A DNA stretch of 31,112 nt from Boothiomyces macroporosus (Eukaryota > Chytridiomycota > Chytridiomycetes > Rhizophydiales > Terramycetaceae): positions 1 through 31,112 of the forward strand of contig JADGKB010000138.1 in assembly GCA_027604185.1 (NCBI GenBank), read 5' to 3'. The position numbers and the translations under genes are program-made. This document shows, piece by piece, positions 12 through 31,112 of this stretch; within the stretch, counting starts at the first letter, position 1; each line of letters opens with the position of its first letter. The notes beneath the pieces are model-generated. The model did not search any database. It saw only the letters and a program-made list of their open reading frames with translations, and was not told the origin of the DNA.

Positions 12-3000
12 TCAATGGGTAGATTCATAGTGCTGCTGAGCCAGCTCTCTAATCAGCTGGGCATTGGCTTGGCCAGACGCATCAGTCATTTGAGAAAAGA
101 TGGACTCCTTGTCTTGTAGTAGCGCATGCGGAGTGTCGAATTCGGCAATCTTGCCCTTGTCAAGCACAATCACTCTGTCGAACCCAGCAATGGTGTTGAG
201 TCTGTGTGCGATACTGATCACAGTCGTCGACCCAAAGTGGTTCTGGATCGCCTGCTGCACCAGCTTGTCAGAGTCGCCATCGATAGACGACGTTGCCTCG
301 TCCATCATCAGAATCTTTGGCTTTTGCAGGATTGAGCGGGAGAGGCATACCAGCTGCCGTTGCCCGACAGAAAGGTTTTCGCCGTTCGTGGTGATTGAGG
401 CATCGAGTTTCTCTGGCAGCTCAGAAACATAGTCCTTCAGCCCAGAGTATTCGAGCGCCTTCCACAGCTCGTCGTCAGTATGCTCGCCAGTGTGGTCCAG
501 ATTTGATCTAAAGGTGCCGTCAAACAGGACCGGCTCTTGGGAAATGATTTGGATTCGGGAGCGCAGAGTGGCGAGCCCCAGCTTTTGGATATCTTGGCCA
601 TCGATGATGATCGTTCCCTGCGATGGCTCCATGATTCGGAAGAATGCGGTCAGCAGAGTGCTCTTTCCTGACCCAGTCCTGCCCACTACACCAACCTTCT
701 CACCAGGCTTGATCAGGGCAGATATCCCCTTGATAATGACAGAGTCAGGTCTGTTTGGATACCGCAGCTCCAAGTCTTTGATTTCAATCTTTCCTTCCTT
801 TGGCCATTGAGTAGCGTCAGGATCAGCTGGCTTGACAGTTTCATCTTCTCTTGGGAGATTATTGCCATAGTAATCCATACGTTCCACAGCATTCATTTCT
901 GCCTCGGCAGTTGCAAGAGTACTTAACAATGCAGTAATACTTTCAGCGATTTGAGTAGCAGACGATAAGGAAAGAGCGACACGTGATGCAAAAGCAATAG
1001 ATGAGCTGGTTGTAAGCACTGCAATCAAAGCCATTGCCAATGAGAGAAAAGAGGTTAATACTGATACACGCAACTGGAACCATATTTGAGCAGATTGGAA
1101 AATATACGAAGGTGCTTGGGAATCATCCATCAACAGCCTTTGCTTGGCTATAAAAGACTGTTCAACTCTATAAGCTCTAATAGTTGCCAAGCCAGTCAAT
1201 GTTTCGGAAATGTGTGAATCTAATGGAGACTTACCAGTAGAAGTAAGTCTTTTCAATTCGATATTTGCTGGTTTATACATGTTGAACAGGCCAATAAACA
1301 GTATAGGTAGCACTACAATGCCGACTATAATTAAAAATAGCTTACTTAAAAGATACCAACTTCCTTGCACAATTAATACCGTAGAGGAAACGATAGAAGC
1401 AACAGTAAAGATAGTTGTCATAAATACACCAACGATTCCATTATCCAGAGCTTCCACATCCGTACTCATTCTGTTTATGATTCTACCAATAGGGTTGCGG
1501 TCATAAAATGCCATGGGTGCACGCAAAAGTCCTTCAAGAGCCATATCATGAAAGTAGCAAGAGGCAGTAATAGCAGCAAAGAAGAATAGCGAAATAAAGA
1601 GAATATTAGCGACCATGTTTGCCAATCCGATACCAGTGTATACTAGCAAATATAGAGTAGTTTCGTGGAATCCAGGAGTTGAAGCTTCAGTAGTCCATCT
1701 AGATAGCCACCACGGATTCAATGTTTGCGCAGCAATTGTAACACAGACTGCAATCGCAATCGCAATTGGCTTACCCAGACCCTTGTACCCTTTCAAATAA
1801 GTGAAGTAGACCGAAGCTTTAACTTGGCCCTGGCGTTTATCCTCTGCTTCAATAAAATCTTGAGTTTCATCGACAACAGCTCCGCCAGAAGCAATCTGCT
1901 TTTCAATAATCTTTTTCTCTTCATCATCTTGCTTCTCATCAAACTTGTATGATTCCAGCATTTCCTTTAATTTACCGTTTTCCTTGTGGATCAGTTCATC
2001 AAACGGTCCAGCTTCAACTATTTTACCTTCGTGGAAAACTAGAATATGATCTACTTGCTGCATGTAGTGAAGTTGGTGGGTCGCCAAGAAAACGGTTTTG
2101 GAAGCCAGCTGGGTTTTAATTGCATTTTCAAATACATGCTTTCCAACTTGGGCATCGAGTGCAGCCAGAGGGTCATCCAGCAAGTAAATATCTGCGTTAA
2201 CGTAAATTGCTCTTGCTAGGGACAATCTAGTTTTTTGGCCACCAGATAGATTAATTCCGTTTTCACCAATTTCTGTTTTGATTCCGTCCTTGAATAGCTT
2301 CAAATCATCTCTTAAACCAGATACATCTATCGCGTTTTCCAATTTCTTTTCATCTACCTCTTGATCAAAGACGATATTCTTTTCAATGGTACCAGTCAAT
2401 ATCCAAGGCTGTTGTGAACAGAAGGCTATTGAACCATTGATTTTTAAATCACCTTCAAGTCTTTCAGATTCATTTATGAGACCGGAAAAGAAGGACGATT
2501 TTCCACTTCCGATTTGCCCAACAACACCCACCAGCTTTCCGGTTGGAATTTCCATGCTTATATTTTGTAGATGGAAAGGTGGTTTTCTTTCCTCTTTTTC
2601 TTCCTTTTCATCGCTTGGTTTTTCCTCTGCTTTTTTCTTTCCAAAACTAAACATTGATTTCTTTGGAGCATCCGACTCTTTTTTCTCGGTTGTTTTGTCC
2701 TTCTTTGCTTCTTTTGGTGGGCCACCTTTTCTTTCCTTTTCTTTTCTAATTTCCTCCTTGATGACATCCAAATCTTCCCATTTCCAAGTAACATTGTCCA
2801 ACTTGATAGCTGGCAGGGCTGGATCTACCGTAGAATTAAACAGCGACGCTTCTTTTTCATCCAGTTCGTCAGCCAGCAAAAATTCGTGTATACGCATGAT
2901 AGATTTACGAACACGAACCACAGAGCTAAGTGTGAACGATAACTGGTTCAAACTACCGACTATAGCACCAATATATGACAGAGCAGCAAAGATTCTACCA

Positions 3001-4061
3001 GGATTCATCTTGTTTCCGTCCCTTACAGCGTAAACAGCAAATGTAGCAACAGTCAGCAAAGTCTGGGAAGAGAAGAGCAAAGCAAGAAAGATACACAGAA
3101 TAGATATAAACTTTTTCAAGTTTATAATTTGCTCTCCTCTGAATTTAGCTACTTTATCTCTGAAATATCCTTCCAAAGCCTGCAACTTGATAATCTTGAT
3201 TCCGTAAAACAACTCACGCATCGCAGCCAATCTTGCATCATTGGCTTTGATCATTCTACTGATATACTTGTTCAAGAATGGGAGTAGTACTGCCGTAGAT
3301 AAAGCAATAGCACCCAAGATTCCGGCACCTGCTAGAAAGGCAGATCCAACTAATCCCCAAATGAAATAAATGTTGAGACCAAACTGGATGGGCAACAACA
3401 CTACTTGGCCAATAATCAACAACCCATTGGTAACAGACTGAACATCTTCATTCACCATGTTCATAATTCTCCCTTCATTAAATTTCTACATTAACGACTA
3501 TTACTGTTTTAGATTTCGAGGCCAGAGTAAACGACTTTTGGTAAATAGCTCCGGTCATGATCGCATTGGATTTTTGGGATATCTTTCTATTAATGTTGGT
3601 GTTTAGCGAAGTGAATATTGTGTTGAAGAGCAGCATTCCAAAATAGATGAAAGCCAATGCAACACCGTTATCTACCCATAAACTATCTCTATTGAATGGA
3701 TCAATGGAATTAACGAGCTAATGTTAGTCCAGAGTACTTGTTCAAGGGCTTTGGGAATATACAAGCCCAGCACAATCGTAATTGATAGGCAAATGACTGA
3801 AAAGAATAGCTCCTTGGACATTATCCTTGCAATAGCTTTAAAAAGCGATGGTTCCGGTCCTTTGCCTTCTCTGAATAGTTTATACTCTACAACAAACGGT
3901 TCAAATTGCTTTGACAAGTTTTCAGACTTGTCATTATCATTCAACTCGTACAAATCGTCTTTGGTTAATGGTTTCTTTTTGGCTTGACGTAGTAGTGGTG
4001 TAAGCCAGCTGATTGTAATGAAACTCAGTAGTCCTGGGTTTATCTGCTGTTTTTGAGTCAT
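12..4061 (-). CDS. ABCC/MRP-type ABC transporter, full length
   Basis: Full-size ABCC (MRP4-like, no TMD0) exporter of 1336 aa, probably moving organic anions or conjugates across the plasma or vacuolar membrane. Exons complement(12..3485, 3505..3717, 3738..4061). The two introns, 3486-3504 (19 nt) and 3718-3737 (20 nt), restore continuous reading through the first membrane domain. NBD1 has Walker A GQIGSGKSS (about residue 500), signature LSGGQ (about 590), Walker B IYLLDDPLAALD (about 609) and an H-loop histidine. NBD2 has GRTGSGKST (about 1110), LSVGQ (about 1212), Walker B ILMMDEATSSID and IAHR. The NBD1 catalytic glutamate is Asp (LLDDP), normal for ABCC proteins. NBD1 also carries a roughly 70-residue Lys/Glu-rich insertion just after its first strand. 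The start is the ATG before TQKQQINPG; the frame stays open upstream without another ATG. It is paralogous to the gene at 25468-29435. Family certain, substrate unknown. Confidence 0.93.
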
Positions 4062-4568: not shown

Positions 4569-5490
4569 TTACAACTTTTGTCTGGTAACTCCCAATTCCA
4601 ACATTTTGGCAAAAGCTGCAGCAAAGTCTTTAAAGAAAGCTTCCTTGTCCTTTGCGTATAATTCAACATAAGGCTTGAATTTAGGATCCCAAATCAAAGC
4701 CATATCAGTTGGAAGCATCATCAATTCATCATCAGGATCAACGTATTGCTTTGGTCCATCCCATTTCTTTTCTCTCCAGTCAACATTTAATAATAGTCTG
4801 TAATATTGGTTGCTGAAACGGTCTGGAGTGTGAGTCCATGGTCCAGAAAAGCCAGATCTGTCAGTGTGGCATCTTCCAAGAGAGTGGGCACCAGATAAAG
4901 CTACAATATCTTGGTCATTGAAACCCATTCTGTAAAATACATCTCTAATATGCTGGGCACCTTGTGCGGCATCAGGAAGTCTACCATCTAGATATAAATA
5001 AAAAAGCTACTTGGTGGAATGACTTTTGCTGGTTGGGCTTGGGCTACTTTTGGGGGAACATCGCTTCTTCCTCCTTTCCATGGGACTTTAGGGCCGTTCA
5101 TAGCTTCAATGGCAACAACACCAGCCAAAGTCCACAAATCAGCATAAGAAATCCAAGGGTGCTTTTGCTTGATTGGTTCCAAAAATGCTCTATAATTAAT
5201 TCCAATTACCTTGCGTGTTCCAAACCAGCATTGGCACCATCAGATGATTCAGGTTTGAATCTCATGGTGGCTCCGTTAGACCCGCCAGTCTTGGTTTTGG
5301 AATCATAGGTTCCTGAAGCATGCTGAATATTAATAATCGCTTACCTAGGATTAATTTTACTTACCCATGCCAAACGAACGAGAACTGGACCGAGAGAGCC
5401 ATCGTCCCAATCTGGTTTCTTTAAGCTGCGGTTAATTTATGCTTACATTGCCACAATATCCTTTCTTACAGCGTCGTAATTCTGAGCCAT
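4569..5490 (-). CDS. Class I heme peroxidase (cytochrome c / ascorbate peroxidase type)
   Basis: A 271-aa heme peroxidase that reduces H2O2. Exons complement(4569..4987, 5011..5189, 5210..5322, 5365..5425, 5447..5490). Distal-pocket Arg32, Trp35 and His36 lie in VRLAWHASG. Proximal His167 is in [10 protein letters not shown], Trp183 in GFSGPW matches yeast CCP Trp191, and the proximal Asp is in LPTDMAL. Arg176 in the CHTDRSGF segment sits where APX has its ascorbate-binding arginine. Introns are 23 nt (4988-5010), 20 nt (5190-5209), a 42-nt block at 5323-5364 made of two complete mini-introns of 22 and 20 nt, and 21 nt (5426-5446). The ATG precedes [11 protein letters not shown] directly, so there is no mitochondrial presequence and a cytosolic enzyme is likely. 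The electron donor (cytochrome c or ascorbate) cannot be decided here. Confidence 0.93.
5323..5364 (-). other. Two adjacent mini-introns with no exon between them
   Basis: On the coding strand the codon TGG is followed by GTAAGTAAAATTAATCCTAG (20 nt, 5345-5364). A second complete intron of 22 nt (5323-5344) follows at once, running GTAAGC to TTCAG with TTAAT near its end, and then the codon CAT. Both units have their own 5' site, branch-like TTAAT and AG. All 42 nt must be removed to keep the heme-pocket RLAWHASG motif; removing only one leaves a stop or a frameshift. Confidence 0.85.
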
Positions 5491-5612: not shown

Positions 5613-6118
5613 TTAAAAAGCTGGATTAATTTCCAGTAACTCAACCTTGGATTAGCACTGCTTACGTCAAATATTAGGGTAGAATTAGGAGGTATAACTT
5701 TTCCAAATCCTTTCTTTCCATATCCATACTCTGGGCTTATCGTTAGAATGGCATGTTCGTTGAGGGACATTGAGAGAACCCCCAAGTTAATTAATCTTAC
5801 CTTCATCCCAACCTCTAATGAATCTGCCAACACCGATTGTTCCTTTGATTGGTGATCTGCCCTCTGCTTTTGAAGAATCAAATATATTTCCGTTTTCTAA
5901 TTTCCCAGTGTAATCCGCCACTATCACATCTCCTAACACCGGAAAAGTCTTTCCGTCTCCTTGCTTGATGATTTTCTTTGTCCATTGCGGTTTGTCTTCT
6001 ATTTTGGTTTGCTTTGGGGATGATACCATAAAGTAGAGGGCTATGTTAGCCTGGAAACACCTAGTAAAGCAATTAAGCCTATTATAGGAAATGTGTATGA
6101 TCTCTGCTTTTTTGCCAT
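5613..6118 (-). CDS. FKBP-type peptidyl-prolyl isomerase with N-terminal membrane anchor or signal
   Basis: A 148-aa FK506-binding-protein prolyl isomerase. Exons complement(5613..5645, 5666..5781, 5801..6040, 6061..6118). Residues about 9-25 form a hydrophobic segment after a basic MAKKQR start, so the protein is probably a signal-anchored or secretory-pathway isomerase. The FKBP fold follows: VIVADYTGKLENGNIFDSS, GRFIRGWDEG, ILTISPEYGYG, IPPNSTLIFDV and ELLEINPAF at the end. No HDEL-type retention signal is present. Introns are 20 nt (6041-6060, starting GTGTTT), 19 nt (5782-5800) and 20 nt (5646-5665). The middle one fits the family alignment only if it ends in GG instead of AG. A shorter start at 6029 would drop the hydrophobic segment. 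The exon encoding it is supported by correct phase and a canonical TAACATAG 3' end. Confidence 0.88.
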
Positions 6119-6819: not shown

Positions 6820-7275
6820 ATGAAAATACCTGGGACACAAATGTTTATAATTATTCCAGCAAAGAAGAGCCCTACTTCTCCAAAAAAACCGCCAAATGCA
6901 TTCATGCGCTACAAATCTTATGTACAAAATCAAATAACTCAAAAATATGGTCAAATTCAAAGTAGCGAAATATCTAAAATTGCAGCTGAAATGTGGAAAT
7001 CTGAACCGGAGACTGTCAAGAACTATTTCAAAGATTTGACAGACTTGGCTTATATGGAATACAAGAATAATAGGGTTAACAAGAAGAGAAAGAGTAGTTC
7101 TGATGTTGAATCTATCGGCAGAAAAAGCTTTGATCTGGAATCGAACAAGAGTGCTTCTATCAATTCACTGGATGAATTGGATAGCTTTGACTTTACTTCA
7201 TTCTCTACGGGTTGGTCTCCCACTATGAATGACGAACAATTCAAGGAATACATTGAAAGAACTTATTGTCAATAA
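6820..7275 (+). CDS. MATA-type HMG-box transcription factor, copy 1
   Basis: A 151-aa intronless protein with one HMG box at about residues 20-85. Diagnostic residues are PKKPPNAFMRYKSYV, the SSEISKIAAEMWKSEP helix and the VKNYFKDLTDLAYMEY helix. The SEISKI..E.WK signature is that of the MATA_HMG family, which includes fungal mating-type and sex-determining factors. It should be a nuclear, sequence-specific DNA-bending regulator. A basic RVNKKRK stretch after the box resembles a nuclear localisation signal. The C-terminus is acidic and ends with a motif shared with copy 2 (SFSTGWSP, then NDE.FKEYIE.TY). It starts at the first ATG after a TATA box. A role in sex determination is inferred from the family only. 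Confidence 0.88.
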   Translation: MKIPGTQMFIIIPAKKSPTSPKKPPNAFMRYKSYVQNQITQKYGQIQSSEISKIAAEMWKSEPETVKNYFKDLTDLAYMEYKNNRVNKKRKSSSDVESIGRKSFDLESNKSASINSLDELDSFDFTSFSTGWSPTMNDEQFKEYIERTYCQ

Positions 7276-7340
7276 ATTAATTTAACTTGCTTGTATTTCA
7301 CTTTGTTTTCTTGTAGCAAATTCATATACTTTACAAATAG

Positions 7341-8064: not shown

Positions 8065-8505
8065 ATGTCTAAAATCCCTGGAACGGATATGTTTGTAATT
8101 AACTCTCCTAAAAAACAACAAAACACACCTAAACGTCCTATAAACTCTTTCTTTAGGTACAAAGCCCATGTCAACAAAATGATTGTTGACAGGTACGGCT
8201 TACTCCAAAGCAGCGAAATAAGTAAAATAGCTGCTGAATGGTGGAAGAACGAATCACCAGAAGTCAAGCGGCATTTTCAGGTAATATCAGGTTAATAATA
8301 GGGACTGACGGAAATCGCTAATATCGATTTCAAGATTAGACAAAGTAAAGTACATAAGCGGCGGAAAGAGAATATTACTTTGAATCTGGGCTATCAGGAC
8401 GATTTGGAATCTCACTTTGACTTTCAATCTTTTTCTACTGGTTGGACACCCAAATGTAACGATGAAACTTTTAAAGAGTATATTGAAAAAACCTACAACT
8501 GCTAA
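8065..8505 (+). CDS. MATA-type HMG-box transcription factor, copy 2
   Basis: A 139-aa paralogue of the gene at 6820. Exons 8065..8280 and 8302..8505. The 21-nt intron (8281-8301) carries an in-frame TAA, and its removal joins the third HMG helix (VKRHFQ to GLTEIANIDF) exactly where copy 1 reads FKDLTDL. The HMG box runs about residues 20-85: PKRPINSFFRYKAHV, SSEISKIAAEWWKNESPEVKRHF. It shares with copy 1 the N-terminus KIPGT.MF.I and the C-terminus SFSTGW.P..NDE.FKEYIE.TY, so both are complete genes of one small family. Direct orientation, 789 bp apart, suggests tandem duplication. Expected to be a nuclear DNA-binding regulator; targets unknown. Confidence 0.86.
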
Positions 8506-8621: not shown

Positions 8622-10546
8622 CTAGGCAGGAGGGATCAGATGATCAAACTCTTTGATTTCATCAGTCATAGATTCTAGCAAAGTGCTGTCAAGTTCAAAC
8701 ATGTAAATATTTCCGTCGACACAACCCAGAGCCAAATTCTTTCTTTCCTTGTCAGAGATTGCTATAGATTGCACAGTAGTGAACAACTGAAAATCAAGTG
8801 TAAAAGAGGTAAAATTCTCAATTAGATCATAGATATAGAGTATTCCTTTAGAATCTATCGCAAAGAATACTGCTGGTCGATGAGGCGACCATAGAATATC
8901 TACAATTTCGTTTTCTACTTCCCACGTAATCAGTGGCGAATCTATTTCCGTATTGAATAGTGCTATATCTCCATTAGCGTATCCGGCCAAGAACAAGTTT
9001 GGTTTACAGGGTGAGATGGATATACAATTGACACTGTTAATAACCGCATCGTGGATGTGCAACTTGAACTGGATTGGGTGAACTTTACCTTGATGTTTGT
9101 TGTATTGGTTAATAATCTCGTAATCGCTCCCAAAAATATAATTTTGTGATTGAGGTAGCATTTTTGCAGACTTGACATAGTGCTCGGTAGGATACTCTGA
9201 CCTACTATTAAGCATTTTTACTTTAAAGGAGGAGGCTTCCATCTTTCGCCAGCTATTACTTCAATCTTTGTTTTTTCAAGTATAACAGTCCAACTCTGGA
9301 CATTGGCAGTGCTATCAACAGAAGCAATTCTAAACGAATTACGTTGGAAAGAGTATTGAATTAAATCTATGATTGGTGATTTATGATTTTCTTCCAGGTC
9401 ATCTGTAATAGCACTTGGCCATATTGTTGGTGTGTTTTCGAAAACAAACGTTTCAGGATTCTTAAAATCCCAAACCTGTAGACTGCCATCATCAGAGCCT
9501 CCAACTATAATAGAGGGTAATTCCGGAGGGTTGAATATACAATTGATTTCTGGATAGCATACCAAATACCTGCATTAAATAGTAGTACTTTGATGGTAAA
9601 GGATCTCCGATTCTCCACAGAGCAATCACAGTCTTTACTTGATTCAGCGATATTTTAACATTCTTGTAAACTACACAAATAAGTTTAGAAAGTGAATCAA
9701 GGAACAATATTCGCGAAACAGGAGCTTTGATGAATTCCGGAACTTGAAACTTTATAGAGTTTTTCAATAAATCATCATTTAAATTCAAACATGATTCTTT
9801 GAATTCCATGGTTTCGTCTTCTAGGAGGATGGATTCTACCAACTGACCTGCAGATTCTAGAAATCCAGTCAACCGTTTTCCAACTTTATGCTTCTCTGTA
9901 GATTTAGGTCGTTCTATCCATGGAAGCTGCGAATACTCTGCTGCAGTTTCCAGCAATTGGTGAGGTGGTGCTTGCGTCCATCTATCTGTAACCAACCAAT
10001 CATCAGATTGTGAGTCTATTGCACGTGTATCACTATTTGTCTGAATATTTACTTGGCTTGTTTTTTGAGATCCAAAGCTCCTAATGTAAAGCTCATATTC
10101 ATTCATTGGATGCAGCTCAAACAGATCATAGTTTACGAAATCTAGTTGAATTAGATGCGCCAAATCCTTTTGCCTCTTTGATTGCTTGTCGCTGTGTTTT
10201 AGCTTGTTTTTTTCTTTTAGTGCGCTTTGTTGCAGCTCTTGAAGGTCCTTCATCTTGTGAGCAGGCAATTCCATAATGTTGCTGTTACTGCCGGACTCTT
10301 TCTTTTGTTTCAGCTGACTAACCATCGCCAAATCATTCTCTCTTGACATTGCTCTGTTCAGTTCAAAGTGGTTACTCTTTTCAGAGTATTCTTCAAAGCT
10401 GTCGTCGTATTCCTTTGTTAAAATATTCTACTTCGAAATCCTCTTCATAATTGGAATAATCCGGAGTCTTTTCTCTCGATAGCAGCGCTGGCTTGAACTT
10501 GTTCTATATTAGCATCTTGTACTTCCTGGCTCTTTGGCGTGAGCAT
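8622..10546 (-). CDS. DYNC2I1/WDR60-like intermediate chain of cytoplasmic dynein-2
   Basis: A 615-aa WD-repeat protein. Exons complement(8622..9201, 9222..9569, 9589..10412, 10432..10503, 10523..10546), with introns of 20, 19, 19 and 19 nt. The N-terminus has the acidic YEEDFEEYDDSFEEY stretch typical of WDR60. The block IQLDFVNYDLFELHPMNEYE, LYIRSFG and a following DRWTQAPP are diagnostic of WDR60/DYNC2I1. The C-terminal half forms WD40 blades (IIVGGSDDGSLQVWDF, LFLAGYANGDIALFN, LALGCVDGNIYMFE). In other organisms this subunit is part of the dynein-2 motor of retrograde intraflagellar transport, which implies a flagellated stage. It is shorter than animal homologues (about 1000 aa), mostly at the N-terminus. 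The 20-nt intron at 9202-9221 could instead be 17 nt, giving LNRSEY in place of LKSEY. Confidence 0.82.
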
Positions 10547-18100: not shown

Positions 18101-18358
18101 ACTCTGTTTGAACCAACCGACAACTTTTTCTATGCTGGCTACAAACAAAAATTGGTTCGAATTCTGCCGCTTGGTACCAGCAAGCTTATTGTGAACGTTA
18201 TTGGAATGAAGAGTGGGTTAGGAAGAGTGCCGGTTCTACGTATTATGAAAAAGAGTGACTTTGAGAAACGGGACAGTGATACTATTGATTTAAGCAAATG
18301 CTTTGATGTTGCCGGTGAAAGGGATGGATTGATGGTTTACATCAACCCAAATAAATAA
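15105..18358 (+). CDS. TRAPPC11: TRAPPC11 / Foie gras homologue, TRAPP complex subunit
   Basis: A 1057-aa protein of the TRAPP tethering complex (ER-Golgi traffic, Rab GEF regulation). Exons 15105..15454, 15474..15909, 15930..16141, 16164..17921 and 17941..18358, with introns of 19, 20, 22 and 19 nt. After the N-terminal region (YPDGIISNEWITKHEKHL), family-specific segments follow in order: YDFKLGYFCETRFDYDQAIKHY and the WIHLQYRLFGDVVEKL stretch (foie-gras region), GFYYLVAAKGLEDA, IKFYDRISKTYRKELWFGLL, and C-terminal beta-sandwich (gryzun-type) segments ending ILPLGTSKLIVNVIGMKSGLGRVPVLRI. Human TRAPPC11 is of similar size (about 1130 aa). The third exon reads about 35 residues longer than expected before the WIHLQYR block, so a further in-frame intron, for example a 27-nt candidate near 16031-16057, cannot be excluded. 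Confidence 0.9.
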
Positions 18359-19135: not shown

Positions 19136-20666
19136 CTAAAAGTATATTGGGTTAACACCTCCGTGAAGGTGGCTTTCGATTACATTCTCGAAAGGCTTGG
19201 TATCAGTCACTTCAAACATTGGGCAGGAAAAATTAAAGTTCAGTATGTACCGTCTTCCTTCCAAATGCTGGGCTTGTAAGTAACGAAGCGGAAACGTCCG
19301 CTGCTTTGAAGCCAATTCGTCTTTATAGAATAATTCATACAGGTCCCATTTTTCTACATAATGAAGATTCAGTTCCTTGTCTTGCCCTTTAATGCTAGTC
19401 TTCAAGATTGCTTTGGATTTTTCCAATTCACCAATACACACAAGTGATTCATCATAATCCAGAAACAAATCGTTTTGTCCCTGAAGCACTCTGATATACC
19501 CAGGCTTGGTAGAGTCATATATCCGAAAAGTGTTGTCCACAGAAACTTTGAATTTCAAATTTTTGCCGATATCATAGCTTTCACCGTCGTACTCTAGTTG
19601 GTAATAGCTTGCGACTTTTCCGTTTACAGTCAATACTTTGCTTTCCAGCTTTCCTTTTGAAACTATATATCCAATAACATCTGGGCATGACGGACAGCCT
19701 TTATCTGCAGTCGTGGATACATTTCTGTCACATTCCGGAGAAGCCCCAATAGAATACATGCCTTCTTTCAAAGAAGCCAAGTCAAGCTTGAATCCTTGCG
19801 TTAGTGAGCTCACTGGCGAGCTAAAGTAATTGGACACTTCTGTTTTCCAATCAATGTAATCTTTTTCGATTCCCTTGTCTTTTAAAGTTAGTGCGGGAGT
19901 TGAATTGTATGAAACTAGTTTCTTCATAGAGGCTGGTATAAGTGGGAGCTTTGAGTCGCATTTTATAGGGGAAACTGGCGAGATGTCCTCTGTGTCTGCT
20001 TCATACGTCCAATTGCTTAGCAGCTCGCGAATACTGACCGTTGAAATAGGCGGTTCAGACTTGGGCGCTTCCTTTACATTCTCTTTGGTAGCTCCTGCTG
20101 GAGATTGATTGAATATTGTAAAGTCTTTTTTGGAATAACCATCTATAGAAGCTGCGCCACAAAATAGTGGTGGGATATTGGATATTGCAGGATTAACTCT
20201 GTTTCCAAAAATATCGGTATCATCATTCGTGTAATCTAATATATCGTTTTCCCCGCTATTTCCTGTTTGGTTTATTCCCAATTCTGATTTGTGGATTTCT
20301 GAACAAGTGGTAGGAAGTGCGACTGGTGGTTGTTCCCCAGTTATAGGAGGTCTTGGTTCATCAACCATATTGTAAAATGTAGTTTCTACATATTAAAATT
20401 AAATTACGAAGTTCCAGCTCTGGGTTTCGCTTGCGGTAACTGTTTGCAATAGCCACTCTCAATAGTGGTTGAGAAACTTGTCTTTTCAATCCTCTAAACG
20501 CACCATGTCTGCGGATTGGTGGCATAGGTTCTGCTTTCTGTTTCCTTGGGAATTGTGGTTCAACTGTCTTTGCTTTTGAGGATTTCTTCTTTATTTGAAA
20601 GTAGTCAGGATATGGACTGTGGACCGTTGTCGACTCGCTGTGCCTTCGCTTGTGATTCCTGTTCAT
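19136..20666 (-). CDS. DUF1684-like protein, paralogue A
   Basis: A 502-aa protein. Exons complement(19136..20385, 20408..20666); the 22-nt intron lies at 20386-20407. The N-terminal half is low complexity with a basic start (MNRNHKRRH). Residues about 265-500 align with paralogues B and C: LTQGFKLDL...EGMYSIGA, GCPSCPDVIGYI, FPLRYLQ, ILNFNFSCP and a final HGGVNPIYF. The order (GxxxxG strand, CPD..G, aromatic D/S..K stretch, R.YPLR, DFN-like stretch, AG-like end) resembles DUF1684, a bacterial and fungal family of unknown function. This copy is the most divergent of the three and lacks the HDLSR.YY motif of the others. An in-frame ATG at 20726 would add 20 residues. Function unknown. Confidence 0.7.
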
Positions 20667-21104: not shown

Positions 21105-22666
21105 CTAAAAATACTCGGGGTTCATACCACCCATCATCTTTCTACTGATACAATTAATAGGAGTTCCTGCTATTGAAACATGAGCAGGATAAGCGTAATT
21201 GAAGTTGACTATGAAGGCATCCTCGCAAGGCTGCAACTCTACTGCTCGGAATCGAAGGCACTTCTGAACAGCCGAGTGAGGATCTGTGTAGTATATCAAC
21301 TTTCTAGTTCCTTCAAAAGCTACCTTGAATGTTATATTTTCACCAAAGAACTTTACGAGCAGGTCAGTTCTACTGGTGAATCTTCCATAAAATTTCAAGT
21401 CAAAATTGTATGGAAAGAACCTGTTGGGCAGCCCAATAAAGAGGTTTTGATAATAATCTCTAGATAGATCATGCCAATGGAAAACTTCATTCTCGTCCAC
21501 TCTGAATTTCAAGTTGTCATCCAAATGAACCAATGTCCCTGGAGAAAGTTCATATAAGCCGGCCTTTTGAAAAGATTTCCCAAGATACAGTATTTTAGGA
21601 ATGTGTTTTCCATACGACTTTATGAATCCAACTTGATCCGGGCAAGCTGGACTGCCATCCTGAGATTTTTCAATCACTTCGTTGCAATTAGCGTGTGCTC
21701 CAATAGTGTGCTCTCCAATTTGTAACGGTTTTAAATCTAGTTGAAATGCTTTTGTAAGTTCGCTTAACGGATCGCTAAGAAATGCCAAAATATCTACAGT
21801 CCAATCTAGAAACTCTTGAGGAACCAATCGCTCCAAAACCGGGCTAGAGGTAAATACCGGGTGGGATATATTCTTTTTTTCTACAAATACTCGACTGCTG
21901 ATGAGCAAAGATTCAAGCTCTGACTCGTTTTTTTGCAATATCGGGCTGTCATTAAGGGATGTTTCTGAACAGTCGCTTTCATAACCTTCCTGTGTGTATA
22001 TGATGTTTGCAAATTCCATAATCTTTGAATTCAGATCCTTTGGTTTCTCCTTTTTAACTTCTGCTTTTCGTTTCATTTCAGGTTTCCGCAGTCTTGGTGC
22101 AAACGGTTCTTCCCTTGGGAGATCTATAAACCTAGCAATCATCGAGTTCCTTAAATCCCTGGGAATCTCCAGGGCAAACTCTTTCAAAAGAGAGCCTTCC
22201 ATTGAGTCCCGTCGTTCGATGTTGCTCTGTTCCCTGAGAAAGGTAATATAATGCGGATCCAATTCTAAGTTAAATAAAGCGTACTTTTGAGTGAGGGCAA
22301 GAACTGCCTTGAAAGAAAGTCTTTGTTTAAATGCTCGGGTATATTGTGGTTGGATATGCTTGGCAACGTTGTTGTTGTAGAACTGAATTTCTTGAGCTTC
22401 ATTTTTGAACTATTGGCCATATTATTGGGATATTGACTGCTTATTGCTCCGTCCCTCTGTCTAGTAAACTCATTATCCTCAAGCGAACGCAATACCGAGG
22501 TTCGCTGAGCAAGGTCTACGACTGTCGATGTAACAATATAATCCGCAGTTGGGTCTTCTGCAACCCACTCTAATGCTGAACTGTCCGTTTGCCTTTCAAC
22601 AAAGTTGTTTCTATTTTCCGCTTCATATGGTGCATAATAGCACCGTTGCCGTTTGTTTGGGTGCAT
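21105..22666 (-). CDS. DUF1684-like protein, paralogue B
   Basis: A 513-aa protein. Exons complement(21105..22264, 22285..22666); the 20-nt intron is GTACGCTTTATTTAACTTAG. The start is the ATG before HPNKRQRCYY, with a basic N-terminus as in A; the frame is open further upstream without a better ATG. A linker motif LNSKIMEFANIIYTQE is shared with paralogue C. The DUF1684-like domain (about 279-513) has LTKAFQLDLKPLQIGEHTIG, GSPACPDQVGFI, WHDLSRDYYQNLF, PYNFDLKFYGRF, a YYTDPHSA stretch, NFNYAYP and the end MGGMNPEYF. It lies in tandem with A and C. No signal peptide or catalytic motif was recognised; function unknown. Confidence 0.75.
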
Positions 22667-23362: not shown

Positions 23363-24722
23363 TTAGAAATAATACGGGTTCAATCCTGCTTCAATCTTAT
23401 GCACTATGCAATTGATGGGAGCTTTGGACCTCTTTCTCAAATGAATTGGGAACGCAAAGTTAAAGTTGAGTATGTACTTGCCGCTTTCTACATGAGGCTT
23501 CAACTCTACCACACGATATGGATATGTTCGCTGTCTGTAAGCAATAGGATCTGTATAGAAAATTTGCTTGATGTGAGTTACAGATGCCCTAAACACCATG
23601 TCTCTTCCAAAATAGTCAATCATGAACTGGGTATCAGAGATGAATTCTCCCACAAATATCAAGTCAAAGTTGTATGGAAGGAACAAGTCTGGCTTTGGAT
23701 GGTAAACATTCTTGTAGAATTCTCTGGATAGATCATGCAAGAACATTTCTTCATCTTCATCCACACGCAACCGTAGGATTTCGTCCAAATGAATCGTAGC
23801 ACCGGCTTTCAGCTCATATTCCATTCCAGCATTCTTCATACCTTTGGCCAACACGAGGGTTTTGGTCCCAGATTTGCCAGTGGAGTATATAGTACCGATC
23901 AAATCTGGACAGGAAGGACTGCCAAGTTCGGATACAACGACTTTCTTTTTGCATGTTAATCCTCCGCCAAACGTGTAACTGCCAGGACCAAGAGTGCGAA
24001 GATCCAAATGATAGGCTCTGGTCAAATAAGTCTGTGGATCGGAATAAAAGGCTACAATGTCCACTTTCCACTCTAGAAACTCTTGAGGGACAAGATTATC
24101 CGATTCATCTGAACTGGCATCTCCTTCCTCTGAACAAGATTGGGGAACTGGAGGGACATTTGGAGAAGGGACATCTGGCAGTCTATCCGCATCAACAATC
24201 CCCTTTTTCGGGGATACAGGGTTACTGTCGAACGCACTCTCTTCTTGGGTATAAATCAAGTCAGCAAGTTTCATGATCCTTGAGTTTAGGGACGCTACAT
24301 CTTGGTCGTCACCAGTAACGGTACTACTGGAGGAGCTGGTATGAGAATCAGGTCTGTCAAATACTCTGTGTGGGTATAATTCATTTGGTGCAATAGCTGG
24401 AATACCAGTGTATTCAACTTCAGGCGACTTTGGTAGGAAAGCGATTGGGCTACCTGATCTGTTAAAGCCTTGTGGTTGGAGAGGACTTATAGGAGGCAAG
24501 GTTCCTAGAATTAAAACAAAACTTACTAAATGGATCCATCTCTCTTTCAACTGCGAGCTTCTCTTGGTAAATATCGTTGTTTGTCAGACCATAGTCTGGC
24601 CGTGATCGTTTGTGCTGCCTTGAGCCAAATTCAAGATCGAATTCAAAGTTTGTCCCAAAGTCGCAGCCAACTGTATAAAAATCATTGCTTAGCTGATGGA
24701 TTTCTCTTTTCTTTTCTTCCAT
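23363..24722 (-). CDS. DUF1684-like protein, paralogue C
   Basis: A 445-aa protein. Exons complement(23363..24504, 24527..24722); the 22-nt intron at 24505-24526 starts GTAAGT and ends TTCTAG. The first exon is highly charged (MEEKKREIHQL, then SRQHKRSRPDYG). The Pro/Ser-rich middle includes LNSRIMKLADLIYTQE, shared with B. The DUF1684-like domain (about 208-445) has LTRAYHLDLRTLGPGSYTFG, GSPSCPDLIGTI, LHDLSREFYKNVY, PYNFDLIFVGEF, FYTDPIAYRQRTYPYR, NFNFAFP and the end EAGLNPYYF. It is the cleanest match to the DUF1684 pattern, especially YTDP..YRQRTYPYR, which corresponds to the family's DxTSG..TYP.GR segment. Function unknown. Confidence 0.75.
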
Positions 24723-25467: not shown

Positions 25468-28400
25468 ATGCAGTTCAGAATTAGAACCGACCCATTCAAC
25501 CTCATAACGAATGTATGGGCAACACCATTCCTGAAGAAGGCAGCGGTAGGATTGCAACCAGAGGTTGATTAAACTGACAACAGGATTTTCCTCCAGTATT
25601 AGACCGAATGCAAGATGTAGAGCCGCTGATGAATGATTACTTGGATGAATTGGATTCATATCTAAAAGATAGGAATAGCAAACCGCCTAGCTTATACACC
25701 CATTTGTTTAAAGTGTTCTACAAGGAAATGTATGTAGTTGCTGATGTAGAATTGCCAATACCGTTGTAAAGCTCGCCTCGCTTTTCACCATTGCAGCCAA
25801 ACCCTTTGTAATTGGCAAGGTACGATATGGCTAACAATTGTTTATCGATTACCTAGACCCGAATTCTCCTCCAGACTGGAATATCCATTGGATTATAGTG
25901 CTTTTGGTACTGCTATTGGTCCTGTCTCCAAGTTTTGACAGTCTCAGTAAAGGATTAAACTTGCGGTTTGAATACAAGTACGTTGCATTCATGAATGCCA
26001 TGCTGTATCAAAAATCGCTAAAGCTCAGCGCAAAGAGTAGGCTAGTAAGTTTTTGATTAATCAGAAATATCAAGGGGGAAATGTCATGAATTATTATTCC
26101 AGGGATGTGGACAGGGTTTACACTGGTTTAGCTATAGTGTATAACGCACTATACCCAGTTATATTCATTATCACCAACTTGGTTTTCCTTTCTTTTCTGG
26201 TCGGATTAGCTACTGTATTTGCTGGTGTTGGGTACTTGGTTCTACTTGCGCTTATCATTGGAATATCGTTCAAGACACAATATTACATGTCTAAACAAAA
26301 TATCATGATTGATGCAAGAATTAATATATTGAGGGATATGCTTAACAGTAAATAATATTAATGTAGATATAAAGAATATCAAGTTATCAAATATTGAATC
26401 CTATTTCCACACCCAGTTGCAAGACAACATTAATGAAGATATGGGTTACCTTTACATGGCGTATTTGTATGGTAGAATCACAACCGCTCTGATTAATGCC
26501 TTTTCTATTATTCTCAGCAGTGTATCGTTTGTTATTTTCAGTGTTCTTGGAAATACTATATCTCCTGCAATTATATTCCCTGCTTACCTATACCTAGACG
26601 CAATTTCCTCTCAAGTTGATTCATTGAGACGGGTTTTAGCGTCATTGTTGAATGTATATGAAGGCTACAACCTTATATCAGACTTCCTACAAGCAGAAGA
26701 GTTTAAACCAATTGTAGGACAACCAAACAACCATGCAAATGCCATTGAATTGGATAACGTGACTTGGAAATGGTTTGATACTGAATATACCAAAAAAATG
26801 CACGACTGGAGGATGAAACAGTTGAGACTGATTAAAAAAGCGAATCAAGAACCAGATATTCAAGAAAACATGGATACCTTTGCACTGAAAAACCTTTCTT
26901 TGCAAGTGAGAAAAGGTCAGTTGATTGGGATTGTCGGAAAAGTAGGTGCGGGGAAAAGTACTCTATTTGCAGGGTTAACCAATGCACTAGACTCTATGCG
27001 AGGAGAGGTAGATATTTATTAATCAGACTTTGATCAATGGCTCCATAGTGTATGCTCCCCAAGAACCATGGCTAATGATGCACACTATTGAGGCCAATAT
27101 TACGTTTGGCAAGAGTCTTGATTCTGAAAGATTACTAAAAGTCGTTACTGCTTGTGGGCTTGTTCATGATTTGAATTCCTTTAAAGATGGGCTACAAACT
27201 AAAATTGGAGAGAATGGAATCAACTTGTCTGGTGGACAAAAAGCCAGAATCTCTCTCGCAAGGTGTTTATACGCAGATGCTGACATTTATCTATTGGACG
27301 ATCCTTTGGCAGCACTTGATTCCTATGTTGGTAGATTTGTATTTGAAAATGTAATCATGAACTTGCTGGCAGAAAAGACAGTTTTACTAGCTACACATCA
27401 ACTGCAGTACATGCACAAAGTAGACCAGGTCATGGTATTTGAAGAAGGAGAGTTGGTAGAGTATGGCAAGTTTAGCCAACTCTTGAATTCTGATGGTTTA
27501 TTCGCAAAGATGATGACTGATTACACGATGGAAGATGTGGATGAAACTAAAGTTTTGGAATTGGCAAATGAAAAACTCAAAGTTTTAGAGCCAGGAAAAC
27601 CACATGAGATTATCAAGCAAGAAAAAAAGCATGTTGGTAACATCAAGTTGGGATTGTACAAGAAAATATTTGCTGGAATGAATAGTTTGTGGTGGTATGC
27701 TGGAATAGCGACTGGCTTTATTCTGAATTTTGTATTAGAGTTTCTTGGATTAATTATACTCACATTGTGGTCAACAGATCCAAACAACAGCATCACGTAC
27801 ATCAAGCTATTATGTGCAGCAGCGATAGTACGAGTCTTTGTTTTTTGTAACTGTTCCTAATTTAGATGTGCTCAATGTTGGATGGTACGTTGGTGGTATC
27901 AACAATCATAAATTCTATTTTAACCAGATGCTTACATCCATCTTGCATGCTCCAATGTATTTTTTCGATGAAACGCCAATTGGAAGAATATTGAATAGGT
28001 TTTCGAATGATATGAACGTTTTGAATTTCCAATTATTCTATAGCTGTTTTACCTCTATTCAATTGATTCTGTCGTTTATTGGAAAGAGTATCATTGTATG
28101 CTTTGCGAGTCCGTTTTTAATTTGTAATTCCAACTAACCTAGTTTTGCTGTTGGTTTCGTATTCGTTGATTTGGTTAGTACGAGGGATATTCGATAGAGC
28201 AAGTCTGGAAATCAAGAGATGGAACTCTTTAAATCTCTCTGCAGTCAATGTACTTTTATCAGAAAGCTTTTCCAGTGTACCAACGGCAAATTTATTCAAA
28301 GCGAACGAATATTTCAAAGAAAAGTTTCAAAGCCGAATTGACGCTTATGTTTCTGCGAATTACATGTTGTTTTGTAATATCTACTGGTATTCCTTTAGAG

Positions 28401-29435
28401 TTTCTATGCTGAATAGTATTATATCTATAGGAATAATAGTAGCAGCAATGCTGGCTCCAAACCATACTTTATCCTTTAGTGCAATAGTAGCACTGGCACT
28501 TACTCAATCTGATAGCTGTACTTCTACTCTATATATCCTGATTGCTACTCTGGCCAGTAACAAAAATCAAATGAATGCATTTGAAAGGGTTTTAGAGTAT
28601 TGCGATGATATAGATCAAGAACCGTCTTTTGATTTTCCAAGTGACAAAAATAATTGGATTGCCTATGGAAGAGTGGAAATTAAAGGGTTAACTGTAGCAT
28701 ACCATTCCAAGCCTGACTTGAATGTCATTAAAAATCTAAGTCTGTCTATAGAGCCTGGGATGAAAGTAGGGGTTGTAGGACGGACTGGATCTGGTAAATC
28801 TACATTCGCGTCTGCGTTTTTCAGATTAGTTGAATTTAAAGGATCAATCTTGATTGATGGAAAAGGTAGACCACACTAACGCAGATTTAAAAACGGTTGG
28901 TTTATCGAGCCTTCGACAAAATATTTATATCATCTCTCAAGAAGCCAATTTGTTCCCGGGAACAATCAGATACAACATTTGCCTCAACAGCAGCTTTTCA
29001 GATGAAGCCATTTGGGATAAGTTGGAGATGGTAGGGCTCAAAGAATATGTTTCTGAGCTACCAGATAGGCTTGATTTCAAGATTGAGTCCAAAGGCAAAA
29101 ACTTGTCGCTAGGCCAAGGCCAGCTGCTGTGTCTGGCAAGAGCATTAGCAAGGAAGCCCAAGCTATTGATTCTTGATGAAGCAAGTTCTTCTATTGATTC
29201 AGAATCGGATCGAAAGTTGCAAAGAGTCATCAAGGATCATTTGCCCGAGACTACGGTACTTTCTATCGCACACCGCCTATATTCTATTGCTGACTACGAT
29301 AAAATCATTGTCCTTGATGCGGGTGAGATGGTTGAATATGATACTCCATTCCAGTTGCTCCAGAACCCTGGATCTGTGTTTTCCAAGTTGGTTGAAGCTA
29401 CTGGCTACTCTACTGGTGAACAAATTCGCATTTAG
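25468..29435 (+). CDS. ABCC/MRP-type ABC transporter, paralogue of the left-edge gene
   Basis: Full-size ABCC exporter, about 1261 aa. Exons 25468..25563, 25584..25745, 25772..25819, 25841..26044, 26065..26347, 26367..27007, 27027..27846, 27866..28123, 28143..28865 and 28885..29435. Most introns are 19-20 nt. NBD1 has GKVGAGKST (about 455), LSGGQ (about 544) and IYLLDDPLAALD. NBD2 has GRTGSGKST (about 1049), LSLGQ (about 1151) and LLILDEASSSID. All motifs are intact, so despite its fragmented look this is a working gene. KPFVIGKFIDYLDP in the first membrane domain recalls the PLFLGKII segment of MRP4. Two joints are weak: the 26-nt intron at 25746-25771 has no clear branch point, and the 21-nt intron at 25820-25840 would end in TG. 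Both introns of the other paralogue occur here at homologous positions. Confidence 0.87.
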
Positions 29436-29477: not shown

Positions 29478-31112
29478 ATGAGTGGCTGGTCACTAAACAA
29501 CGCATTTGAATTTGTAAAGAGTGCGGTTGATTCAGTAGAGAGCCAGCTGGATAGCATTCTGGACCAGGAAAAGAAACCCAAGCCCACGAGCGATGTGTTT
29601 AAAAAGAGCAAACATCTATCGAAAGCAAAACAGAATGGGAGTGATGAATCAAACTCACAAGCAACTGTAAAGAAATCGGATGACGGAATACTGGGGAAAT
29701 CGACTGAATTAGTTGGGAACAAAGCTGCTGGAGGAGCGGTATCTGTATCCGACAAGGCAATCAGTAAACAACCAGAAGTAGATGAGGAGCAGCCTGACAC
29801 ATCTGTTGATATAAATACAGTAAAGCAGCCAGTGGAGGGAATCTCGATTGATTCAACAATTATAAATCAAACTAATGTGCCGGTTGAAATGAAAGATGGT
29901 TCCCTTGGTCAGCAATTAAATAAAGATGAGTCAATGAAAGAGGGATGGGGCTCTATGGATGATTTTGAAATTGAAGATGTGTTGGATGATAATACAATGG
30001 AAGTGACTGGTGTTGCAGCAACAGAGGAAGTAATTGGTGTTGCAGCAACAGAGCAAGTAGGTGATGCTACAAGAGAGCAAGTGGGTGATGCTACAAGGGA
30101 GCAAGTGGGTGATGCTACAAGGGAGCAAGTGGGTGATGCTACAAGGGAGCAAGTGGATGCAGCAACAGAGCAAGTAGGTGTTGCAGCAACAGAGCAAGTA
30201 GGTGATGCTACAAGAGAGCAAGTGGGTGATGCTACAAGGGAGCAAGACATGGCTGATATCCCTGACAAAAAAGAACTCTATACAAATGGAGAAAAGGTGT
30301 TGGATAAGAAAGAGTATATCGAAACCAAAGTCAATCAAGAAATTATTGATAAAGTGGAATTGGAGAGTAAATCTATCGAGAACCTAAAAGCGGTAGTTGA
30401 ACAGGAAATACTAGCAGACTCACAGAATGAGCAAAAACCAGTGATTGAGCAGAAAGTTGGAAGTCTTGACGAACTAGAAAAACGCAATATGCAACTATTA
30501 GAAGCCAAGACTGAGAATGCTGAGCTGTACAATCGGATTCAGCAATTGGAACAAGAGTTGGCTCAGAAACAATCGAATTATGAAATGCTAAATGAAAGAT
30601 ACGTCAAGTACAAAGAAAAGCAGGACAACGAGACGGACTCAAGCTTTACTGAAATGCAGAATGCGCTGAATCAAAAGGAAGAAAAGATTGCTGGGTTATT
30701 AAAAGAAGGAGAAGATTTAGCAAAGCAAGTGCTAAAGGCAAACACTTTGACGAAAAACTATAGAAAACAGGTAGAGGATTTGAAAAAAGAAAATGCAGAT
30801 AAATCTACTAAATTGGAACAAAGTCAGCAGAAAATTGAACAACTAAACAATAAAATGGCGGGAATGAAAGAGTCGGAACGCGTTATTCAAGGTACTTGAA
30901 ATTAACAAAGAAAACTTTACGATCCTGACAGAAAAGAATTCTGCCAATCAAAAAAAGTTGAGCGAATATGAAAGTCAAATCGTTATTCAAAATCAGCAGA
31001 TTACAGATCTGACCAATACAATCACAACCTTGAACGAGACTATTAGCGATCTTGATGCAAAAATAAACGAAAAGCAAGTGTCTTTGCAGACAGAGCAATT
31101 GACAAAGCAGAT
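29478..31112 (+). CDS. TMF1-like golgin, truncated by window end
   Basis: The first 538 residues of a coiled-coil protein. Exons 29478..30891 and 30911..31112 and beyond; the 19-nt intron is GTACTTGAAATTAACAAAG. The N-terminus (MSGWSLNNAFEFVKSAVDSV) matches the short amphipathic start of TMF1/Sgm1 golgins. An unstructured region with a Gly-Trp-Gly stretch and an 8-residue tandem repeat follows. From about residue 330 there is continuous coiled coil, including LNQKEEKIAGLLKEGEDLAK and LTKNYRKQVEDLKKEN, which fit the TMF 'DNA-binding' coiled-coil domain. Members tether vesicles at the Golgi and bind Rab6/Ypt6 through a C-terminal domain, which is outside the window. It starts 42 bp after the ABCC stop. 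Confidence 0.82.
30009..30246 (+). repeat. 24-bp in-frame tandem repeat in the TMF1-like gene
   Basis: About nine units encode EQVGDATR or the variant EQVGVAAT. The core GATR units at 30060-30155 are nearly identical at DNA level, pointing to recent expansion by slippage or unequal crossing-over. The length is a multiple of three, so the frame is kept. Confidence 0.92.

What the first reader, a model, noticed from the sequence alone, without database searches (positions are those of the whole stretch)
12..31112. Genome-wide ultra-short spliceosomal introns (19-23 nt)
Forty introns in 13 of the 16 protein genes were resolved by matching conserved protein segments across frame breaks. Lengths are 19 (18), 20 (13), 21 (3), 22 (4), 23 (1) and one doubtful 26. 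Each has GT (mostly GTA), usually YTAAY or a close variant, and AG 4-6 nt after it. Such uniform tiny introns are known from chlorarachniophyte nucleomorphs, some ciliates and a few microsporidia, but here they sit in a gene-rich genome with cilium and Golgi genes. With the branch A about 10 nt from the 5' site, the spliceosome must work under extreme spacing.
Basis: partly seen in the sequence, partly recalled or inferred. Interest (0 to 1): 0.88.

Follow-up and report, generated by a model that had tools for sequence, protein, structure and literature searches.

The report
Chytrid fungus with twenty-letter introns
Many genes of a swimming-spore soil fungus (Boothiomyces) are interrupted by non-coding inserts of only about 19 to 22 letters, close to the shortest that a cell is known to cut out of its messages, which makes it a fungal case for asking how small an intron can be.

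Summary
Confirmed and identified. The window is a 31,112-bp contig of the chytrid fungus Boothiomyces macroporosus (spliced peroxidase 100% identical to that species' public protein, longest contig 31,112). A decoder told only 'GT...AG, any length 10-250' puts 105 of 188 introns at 18-23 nt in 237 kb of this genome; seven false dinucleotide pairs show no peak. Extrapolated, roughly 20,000 such introns in 15.2 Mb. Signals are ordinary U2-type (GTA, YTAAY, AG); U2, U6, a U1 candidate, Prp8, SF1, U2AF65 and SMU1 are encoded. The inferred branch A sits at position 14-15, not about 10; 5-6 nt follow it. Cilium genes are expected in a zoosporic chytrid. Uniform ultra-short introns are known from heterotrich ciliates, mikrocytids and chlorarachniophyte nucleomorphs; my searches of open-licence papers listed no report in a fungus. 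New member of a known kind, in another kingdom. No transcript data could be used.

The parts
12..4061 (-). ABCC transporter gene 1; introns 3718-3737 (20 nt), 3486-3504 (19), 1325-1345 (21, in frame, no stop)
   Evidence: spliced frame has one terminal stop; ABC_membrane and ABC_tran domains
3718..3737 (-). intron, 20 nt
3486..3504 (-). intron, 19 nt
1325..1345 (-). intron, 21 nt, in frame and stop-less
   Evidence: removal takes 7 aa out of the second ABC_membrane match, 249 against 256 aa
4569..5490 (-). cytochrome c peroxidase gene, 5 introns
   Evidence: spliced protein 100% identical to P0121 Boothiomyces macroporosus; peroxidase domain 1-237 of 237
5426..5446 (-). intron, 21 nt
5345..5364 (-). 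intron, 20 nt, abuts the next one (zero-length exon)
5323..5344 (-). intron, 22 nt, abuts the previous one
5190..5209 (-). intron, 20 nt
4988..5010 (-). intron, 23 nt
5613..6118 (-). FKBP-type isomerase gene, 3 introns
   Evidence: FKBP_C 2-94 of 94 when spliced, 97.6 bits against 37.6 from one exon
6041..6060 (-). intron, 20 nt
5782..5800 (-). intron, 19 nt, ends GG (added by eye)
5646..5665 (-). intron, 20 nt
6820..7275 (+). HMG-box gene 1, no intron
8065..8505 (+). HMG-box gene 2, 1 intron
8281..8301 (+). intron, 21 nt
8622..10546 (-). dynein-2 intermediate chain (WDR60/DYNC2I1-like), 4 introns
   Evidence: best PDB match dynein-2 intermediate chain 1, 2.5e-29
10504..10522 (-). intron, 19 nt
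10413..10431 (-). intron, 19 nt
9570..9588 (-). intron, 19 nt
9202..9221 (-). intron, 20 nt
10573..11924 (+). signal peptide peptidase gene, 3 introns
   Evidence: Peptidase_A22B 3-283 of 286 when spliced
10654..10673 (+). intron, 20 nt
10838..10856 (+). intron, 19 nt
11488..11507 (+). intron, 20 nt; splicing joins the QPALLYL motif
   Evidence: alignment to SPPL2A runs through the junction
12109..14161 (+). membrane-protein-like gene without Pfam match, 1 intron
12329..12347 (+). intron, 19 nt
14410..15045 (+). Snf7-domain gene (CHMP1-like, name recalled), 3 introns
   Evidence: Snf7 5-168 of 171 when spliced
14515..14533 (+). intron, 19 nt
14620..14638 (+). intron, 19 nt
14904..14922 (+). 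intron, 19 nt
15105..18358 (+). Foie-gras-domain gene (TRAPPC11-like, name recalled), 4 introns
   Evidence: Foie-gras_1 1-253 of 257 when spliced, 86.5 against 67.1 bits
15455..15473 (+). intron, 19 nt
15910..15929 (+). intron, 20 nt
16142..16163 (+). intron, 22 nt
17922..17940 (+). intron, 19 nt
18461..19092 (+). membrane-protein-like gene without Pfam match, 1 intron
18694..18713 (+). intron, 20 nt
19136..20666 (-). gene family member 1, 1 intron
20386..20407 (-). intron, 22 nt
21105..22666 (-). family member 2; frame break near 22,410 not resolved
23363..24722 (-). family member 3, 1 intron
24505..24526 (-). intron, 22 nt
25468..29435 (+). ABCC transporter gene 2, 9 introns
   Evidence: open when spliced; MRP4-like
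25564..25583 (+). intron, 20 nt
25730..25749 (+). intron, 20 nt
25820..25840 (+). intron, 21 nt, ends TG (added by eye)
   Evidence: alignment to MRP4 runs through the junction
26045..26064 (+). intron, 20 nt
26348..26366 (+). intron, 19 nt
27008..27026 (+). intron, 19 nt, inside the first ATPase domain
   Evidence: ABC_tran split 1-43 / 56-137 over the two exons, aligned as one stretch when spliced
27847..27865 (+). intron, 19 nt
28124..28142 (+). intron, 19 nt
28866..28884 (+). intron, 19 nt
29478..31110 (+). TMF-domain (golgin-like) gene, cut by the contig end, 1 intron
   Evidence: TMF_DNA_bd match
30892..30910 (+). intron, 19 nt

Best explanation
These are ordinary U2-type (GT-AG) spliceosomal introns that have shrunk, across the genome, to a narrow 19-22 nt band in the chytrid Boothiomyces macroporosus. 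Shown by sequence: each is little more than its three signals, GTA(A)NT at the start, a YTAAY branch-like sequence whose inferred branch A is at position 14-15, and a 3' end 5-6 nt after it; removal restores conserved proteins; no second class up to 250 nt stands out; the genome encodes U2, U6, a U1 candidate with a normal 5' end, Prp8, SF1, U2AF65, SMU1, Cwc25 and ISY1. Inferred: splicing goes by intron definition, with U1/U6 at the 5' end and SF1/U2 at the branch site packed or exchanged in turn on the same 14 nt. There is no room for a polypyrimidine tract between branch A and AG (3-4 nt), so U2AF65 can hardly work there in the usual way, and the 17-nt U6/intron helix described for the human B complex cannot form before the branch site. 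Introns stay near the shortest length that still splices, and vary by 1-2 nt on either side of the branch A.
For: Length peak specific to GT-AG without motif or length preference; motif decoder and branch geometry; persistence outside the window; 40 curated introns; restored domains; peroxidase identical to the public B. macroporosus protein; Prp8 spliced at six introns of 19-22 nt aligns in one stretch with human Prp8, and the public Prp8 of Boothiomyces sp. JEL0866 agrees at five of the six; spliceosome parts.
Against: No transcript reads were available. Public gene models are themselves predictions. Introns over 250 nt were not looked for. The motif model was seeded with 18-23 nt introns, so its length counts are partly circular (one search is not), and 13 of its 51 calls in the window did not survive my curation. 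The false-pair controls used codon tables trained on the GT-AG run. The U1 candidate scores 68.8 bits, just under Rfam's 69.5. RED was not found by two Pfam families, without a positive control.
Confidence: 0.94

Rival explanations
1. Frame breaks caused by sequencing or assembly errors, or by pseudogenes, that only look like short introns.
For: Two homology-backed introns end in GG and TG, which a base error could give; two loci are duplicated letter for letter over 3,111 bases.
Against: Errors do not add 19-22 nt with a GTA start, YTAAY and AG; false dinucleotide controls show no length peak; Prp8 carries six of them.
Confidence: 0.02
2. The short class is real, but a second class of much longer introns (over 250 nt) also exists and was not seen.
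For: The decoder stopped at 250 nt; 170 introns of 30 nt or more remain in the motif model with a flat length prior, most of them unexplained.
Against: 21 of those 170 carry a complete short module at their 3' end, against 68 of 4000 random AG sites, so part are decoder errors; the plain GT-AG run gave 83 introns outside 18-23 nt, while each false pair gave 161-175 in all; the curated peroxidase, FKBP and ABCC genes need none.
Confidence: 0.1
3. The inserts are removed from DNA (eliminated sequences as in ciliates) or skipped in translation, not spliced from RNA.
For: Uniform short inserts are also typical of eliminated sequences (recalled).
Against: The ends are GT and AG with a branch-like motif at a fixed distance; U2 and U6 genes and a U1 candidate are present.
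Confidence: 0.01

Closest known systems
Chlorarachniophyte nucleomorph introns (18-21 nt)
   Same: Almost the same narrow length band (PMC10245619, passages)
   Different: Those lie in a relict endosymbiont nucleus; here it is a 15.2-Mb genome of a fungus
Heterotrich ciliate introns (Stentor coeruleus, 15-16 nt)
   Same: Uniform, GU-AG, free-living host; about 5 nt follow the branch A (position 10 of 15, 11 of 16; PMC9505925, passages)
   Different: Here 4-5 nt more lie between 5' site and branch A, and the branch consensus is clear, whereas that of Stentor is said not to be strong
Mikrocytid introns (16-17 nt)
   Same: Narrow size, conserved sequence (PMC10245619, passages)
   Different: 224 introns and a strongly reduced spliceosome in a parasite, against an estimated 20,000 introns here
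Paramecium and Nyctotherus introns (about 25 nt)
   Same: Ultra-short class only (PMC5014332, start of abstract in a listing)
   Different: Longer; here in-frame stops in 58 of 104 21-nt introns against 130 of 208 in the other phases give no sign of stop-codon selection (my detection is biased)
Other fungal introns
   Same: Same U2-type signals; chytrid ancestors are inferred to be intron-rich (PMC8476143, passages)
   Different: That 644-genome survey calls a mean of 63 bp relatively short, and its Table 1 has two Chytridiomycota; [quoted passage not shown]

Membership tests
U2-type spliceosomal introns | GT...AG ends with a branch-point motif near the 3' end | tested here: met
   position 3 is A in 89% of 393 introns of 17-24 nt; of 389 of 18-23 nt, YTRA core in 288 and inferred branch A 5-6 nt before the 3' end in 330. 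GT and AG were required by the decoder
U2-type spliceosomal introns | U2-type spliceosome encoded in the same genome | tested here: met
   U2 (two genes), U6, U1 candidate just under the Rfam cut-off, Prp8, SF1, U2AF65, SMU1, Cwc25, ISY1; U4 and U5 not sought
U2-type spliceosomal introns | Removed from RNA as a lariat | not testable with these tools
   no RNA data held
Genomes with uniformly ultra-short introns | One dominant narrow length class under about 30 nt | tested here: met
   105 of 188 at 18-23 nt without any length prior; 389 of 460 with a motif and length model
Genomes with uniformly ultra-short introns | No second, longer class | tested here: inconclusive
   no peak from 24 to 250 nt; longer ones not searched
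Minor (U12-type) introns | U12 snRNA | tested here: inconclusive
   RF00007: no match in G000, but nothing rang in any control either
Nucleomorph | Tiny relict genome of housekeeping genes | tested here: not met
   15.2-Mb genome of a Boothiomyces fungus

The most novel reading that the evidence does not exclude
The spliceosome of this fungus has been retuned to read ultra-short introns by fixed spacing more than by sequence: the 3' site is set by distance from the branch A, so that AG can decay to TG or GG in a few percent of introns, and the NTC protein ISY1, whose start reaches the catalytic centre, has lost the widespread MARN start, as the start of Stentor ISY1 was reported to be non-conserved. 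Two unrelated lineages with tiny introns would then have altered the same protein tip.
Probability: 0.25. Interest if true: 0.8.

Novelty: new member of a known kind. Interest (0 to 1): 0.62.

Why it matters
It would add an independent case, in Fungi, of a genome in which most introns sit near the physical minimum, in a lineage inferred to be intron-rich and with U2AF65, SF1 and a human-type SMU1 among the parts found. That would separate small introns from spliceosome reduction, with which they go together in mikrocytids, and it supports tests of which spacing limits are general: here and in Stentor about 5 nt follow the branch A, while the 5'-side spacing differs by 4-5 nt. It also warns annotators: in-frame 21-nt introns can stay in public proteins (Prp8 of Boothiomyces sp. 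JEL0866).

Tried and rejected
Selection for stop codons inside retained introns (Paramecium-like): no excess in the true phase, e.g. 58 of 104 21-nt introns against 130 of 208 in the other two phases, 45 of 82 19-nt introns against 111 of 164, 91 of 139 20-nt against 180 of 278; my detection favours frame-breaking introns, so this is weak.

Loss of U2AF65 or SF1 for want of a polypyrimidine tract: rejected, both are encoded with short introns of their own. By single exons U2AF65 scored 230.7 bits against a cut-off of 310.3; the spliced protein matches solved U2AF65 over both RNA-binding domains and the C-terminal domain. Loss of Smu1-RED, the human factors for short 5'ss-branch distances (PMC6692369, passages): SMU1 is present; RED_N and RED_C gave nothing, but no control rang, so absence is not shown.

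Rows dropped from and added to the window list: one search had 51 introns there. I dropped 13: 4084-4322, 4371-4572, 5621-5640, 5731-5800, 11887-11962, 21086-21105, 22265-22284, 23432-23453, 25158-25179, 25251-25269, 25391-25455, 25808-25978, 28416-28442. I added 5782-5800 and 25820-25840, which do not end in AG. In Prp8 (L026) I dropped 12-60 and 205-224 as leader artefacts. Sliding the introns by 3-30 nt (12 genes given; FKBP and TMF left out) is a weak control: frames stayed open in 6 of 2000 trials for ABCC2, 12 for TRAPPC11, 38 for the peroxidase, 149-484 for SPP, WD40, ABCC1, HMG2 and CHMP1, 1071-1239 for three one-intron genes and 2000 of 2000 for family member 3. rRNA placement was not reached and was no longer needed.

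Papers: ten searches. Among the titles shown none is about intron length in Boothiomyces, Terramyces or Rhizophydiales; two searches showed all their hits, the others only the best 15-30. They cover open-licence PMC papers, so this does not show that it is unpublished. I saw passages of PMC9505925, PMC10245619, PMC6692369, PMC5364385, PMC8476143, PMC11649378, PMC8624252 and PMC8363638, and listings only of the rest.
Full report
WHAT IT IS. The window is contig C138 (31,112 bp, whole) of a 15,203,306-base, 216-contig assembly. Spliced in silico, its peroxidase gene gives a 271-aa protein identical to cytochrome c peroxidase of Boothiomyces macroporosus, whose longest listed contig is 31,112; the next hits are Terramyces sp. 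JEL0728 at 95% and Globomyces pollinis-pini at 84%. Prp8 of the same assembly is 99% identical to Boothiomyces sp. JEL0866. Boothiomyces is a chytrid: Chytridiomycota, Rhizophydiales, Terramycetaceae. Chytrids make flagellate zoospores (recalled), so a dynein-2 intermediate chain in the window is no surprise.

THE OBSERVATION. I curated the window gene by gene. Of 16 genes, 14 carry 40 resolved introns: 19 nt (18), 20 (13), 21 (4), 22 (4), 23 (1). One gene has none (6820-7275) and one has an unresolved break (21105-22666, near 22,410). Splicing turns split domains into whole ones: peroxidase from 76.1 bits (one exon, profile 116-237) to 172.6 (1-237 of 237); FKBP_C from 37.6 to 97.6 (2-94 of 94); signal peptide peptidase from 174 to 233.8; Foie-gras_1 from 67.1 to 86.5. 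At 11488-11507 the junction falls inside the QPALLYL motif, and the alignment to SPPL2A runs through it. Several genes without known domains (12109-14161, 18461-19092, 19136-20666, 23363-24722) rest on the reading frame and the intron signals alone.

IS IT MORE THAN CHANCE, AND GENOME-WIDE? I wrote a two-strand gene decoder that knows codon usage, start and stop codons and a flat cost for any GT...AG of 10-250 nt, with no motif and no length preference. On 23 loci (237,496 bases, the window included) it called 170 genes and 188 introns, 105 of them at 18-23 nt (19: 21, 20: 44, 21: 20, 22: 16). The same run with seven false dinucleotide pairs, using the codon tables of the GT-AG run, gave 161-175 'introns' each, 27-40 of them at 15-30 nt, and never more than 7 at one length. 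A second model with splice motifs, seeded from those short introns, gave 460 introns in 25 loci (248,844 bases, 148 genes), 389 at 18-23 nt; with motifs but a flat length prior, 300 of 479. Without the window, 345 of 409. 111 of 148 genes have at least one; density is 1.91 per kb of coding sequence. Scaled by length the model gives about 24,000 and the curated window about 19,500 in the assembly (my arithmetic); I quote roughly 20,000, because 13 of 51 model calls in the window failed curation. An independent check is Prp8: removal of its six 19-22 nt introns gives a protein that aligns with human Prp8 over residues 5-2309 in one stretch.

ANATOMY. In the 389 short introns the inferred branch A is at position 14 (140) or 15 (171), and 5 (176) or 6 (154) nt follow it, the AG included; the commonest branch pentamers are TTAAT, CTAAT, TTAAC and CTAAC. 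Position 3 is A in 89%, but position 5 is G in only 19% and T in 40%, although the U1 candidate has the usual ATACTTACCTG start and U6 the usual ACAGAGA (both motifs recalled). Intron GC in the window is 0.25 without the end dinucleotides. Length differences are spread over both spacers.

MACHINERY. Found in the assembly: U6, two U2 genes with GTAGTA, a U1 candidate at 68.8 bits against Rfam's 69.5, Prp8, SF1, U2AF65, ISY1, Cwc25 and SMU1. Not matched: RED by two families and U12, in each case without any positive control. Stentor was reported to differ at two branching factors, the Cwc25 N-terminal plug and the ISY1 start (PMC9505925, passages). In Boothiomyces the Cwc25 start is the human one, MGGGDLNLKKSWHP, so that half of the Stentor pattern does not recur. 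ISY1 differs: of 17 aligned proteins (the query and 16 that I chose from 120 listed) 12 start MARN; the two Boothiomyces rows start MAPKTLAQKQE, Globomyces starts MANNQKEKQ, and two rows look cut short. Alignment to the eight matching solved ISY1 chains begins only at residue 38-47 of the query. A pattern search for a MARN-like start in six frames of the 3.2-kb locus hit once, in another frame within the gene body. The first-exon model of ISY1 is uncertain (the public JEL0838 protein is spliced differently there), and FNQSKLANILKKY may be the diverged counterpart of the usual start. This is a lead, not a result.

HOW IT PROBABLY WORKS. Shown: signals, geometry, factor genes. Inferred: intron definition on a very short RNA, with the 5' site and branch site used in turn by U1, SF1/U2 and U6. 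Human B complexes form a 17-nt U6/intron helix, and short 5'ss-branch distances need Smu1 and RED (PMC6692369, passages). With branch A at position 14-15 that helix cannot be complete, so assembly here must use a shorter contact. With 3-4 nt between branch A and AG there is no downstream polypyrimidine tract; in human short introns SPF45 replaces U2AF in a similar shortage (PMC8363638, passages), which I did not test here.

LOOSE 3' SITES. When the decoder may end an intron in any dinucleotide, 398 of 458 end in AG and 60 do not (TG 10, AT 8, AA 6, GG 5, the rest fewer or equal). TG is over-represented (10 of 58 distinct strings, against 6% that I assumed from base composition, P 0.002), and its branch motifs are strong (7 of 10 against 10 of 48 for the rest, P 0.004). 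Two non-AG cases have protein homology across the junction: GG at 5782-5800 in FKBP and TG at 25820-25840 in ABCC2. Many of the remaining candidates are probably decoder noise, the tests were made after seeing the first two, and assembly errors cannot be excluded.

COMPARISON. Uniform ultra-short introns are known at 15-16 nt in heterotrich ciliates, 16-17 in mikrocytids and 18-21 in chlorarachniophyte nucleomorphs (PMC9505925 and PMC10245619, passages), and about 25 nt in Paramecium (PMC5014332, listing). A survey of 644 fungal genomes, with two Chytridiomycota in its Table 1, infers an intron-rich chytrid ancestor and calls a mean of 63 bp relatively short (PMC8476143, passages). Ten searches of open-licence papers listed no report of the class in a fungus. 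Public gene models already use such introns: all five of the peroxidase gene and five of six in Prp8 of JEL0866, the two genes that I compared in full; so the data exist, and what seems missing is the notice. The JEL0866 Prp8 model keeps seven residues, LSFTNCR, where our gene has a 20-nt intron and where human Prp8 has none: best read as a 21-nt in-frame intron left in the annotation.

VERDICT. Real, genome-wide on the sample examined, and a new member of a known kind in a kingdom where my searches found none. Not verified by RNA.

Noticed in passing
window 5323-5364 (minus strand): Two complete introns, 20 and 22 nt, abut with a zero-length exon between them (or form one 42-nt intron): a possible case of stepwise (recursive) splicing in the peroxidase gene. 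The decoder shows similar unverified pairs at L004 7568-7669 and L005 7017-7058.
   Followed up: partly
window 5782-5800 and 25820-25840: Homology-backed introns that end in GG and TG instead of AG; TG ends look enriched among candidate non-AG introns.
   Followed up: partly
L038 1434-1570 (G000 C39): The ISY1 N-terminus departs from the widespread MARN start; Globomyces is intermediate.
   Followed up: partly
L026 349-368 against P0001: The public Prp8 protein of Boothiomyces sp. JEL0866 keeps 7 residues that look like a retained 21-nt in-frame intron.
   Followed up: yes
L040 and L041 (G000 C49 and C100): Two loci with the Cwc25 gene are identical over 3,111 of 3,111 bases: a recent duplication or an assembly duplicate.
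   Followed up: no
window 19136-24722: Three neighbouring genes with similar C-termini (NPIYF, NPEYF, NPYYF) and no Pfam match in the ORFs given; apparently a tandem family.
   Followed up: no
window 30000-30250: In-frame tandem repeat (about 'EQVGDATR') in the TMF-like golgin gene.
   Followed up: no
window 7300-7760: Short direct repeats seen by eye between the two HMG-box genes ('tagttcataaatggtct', 'tcgaccacctgtcaaa').
   Followed up: no
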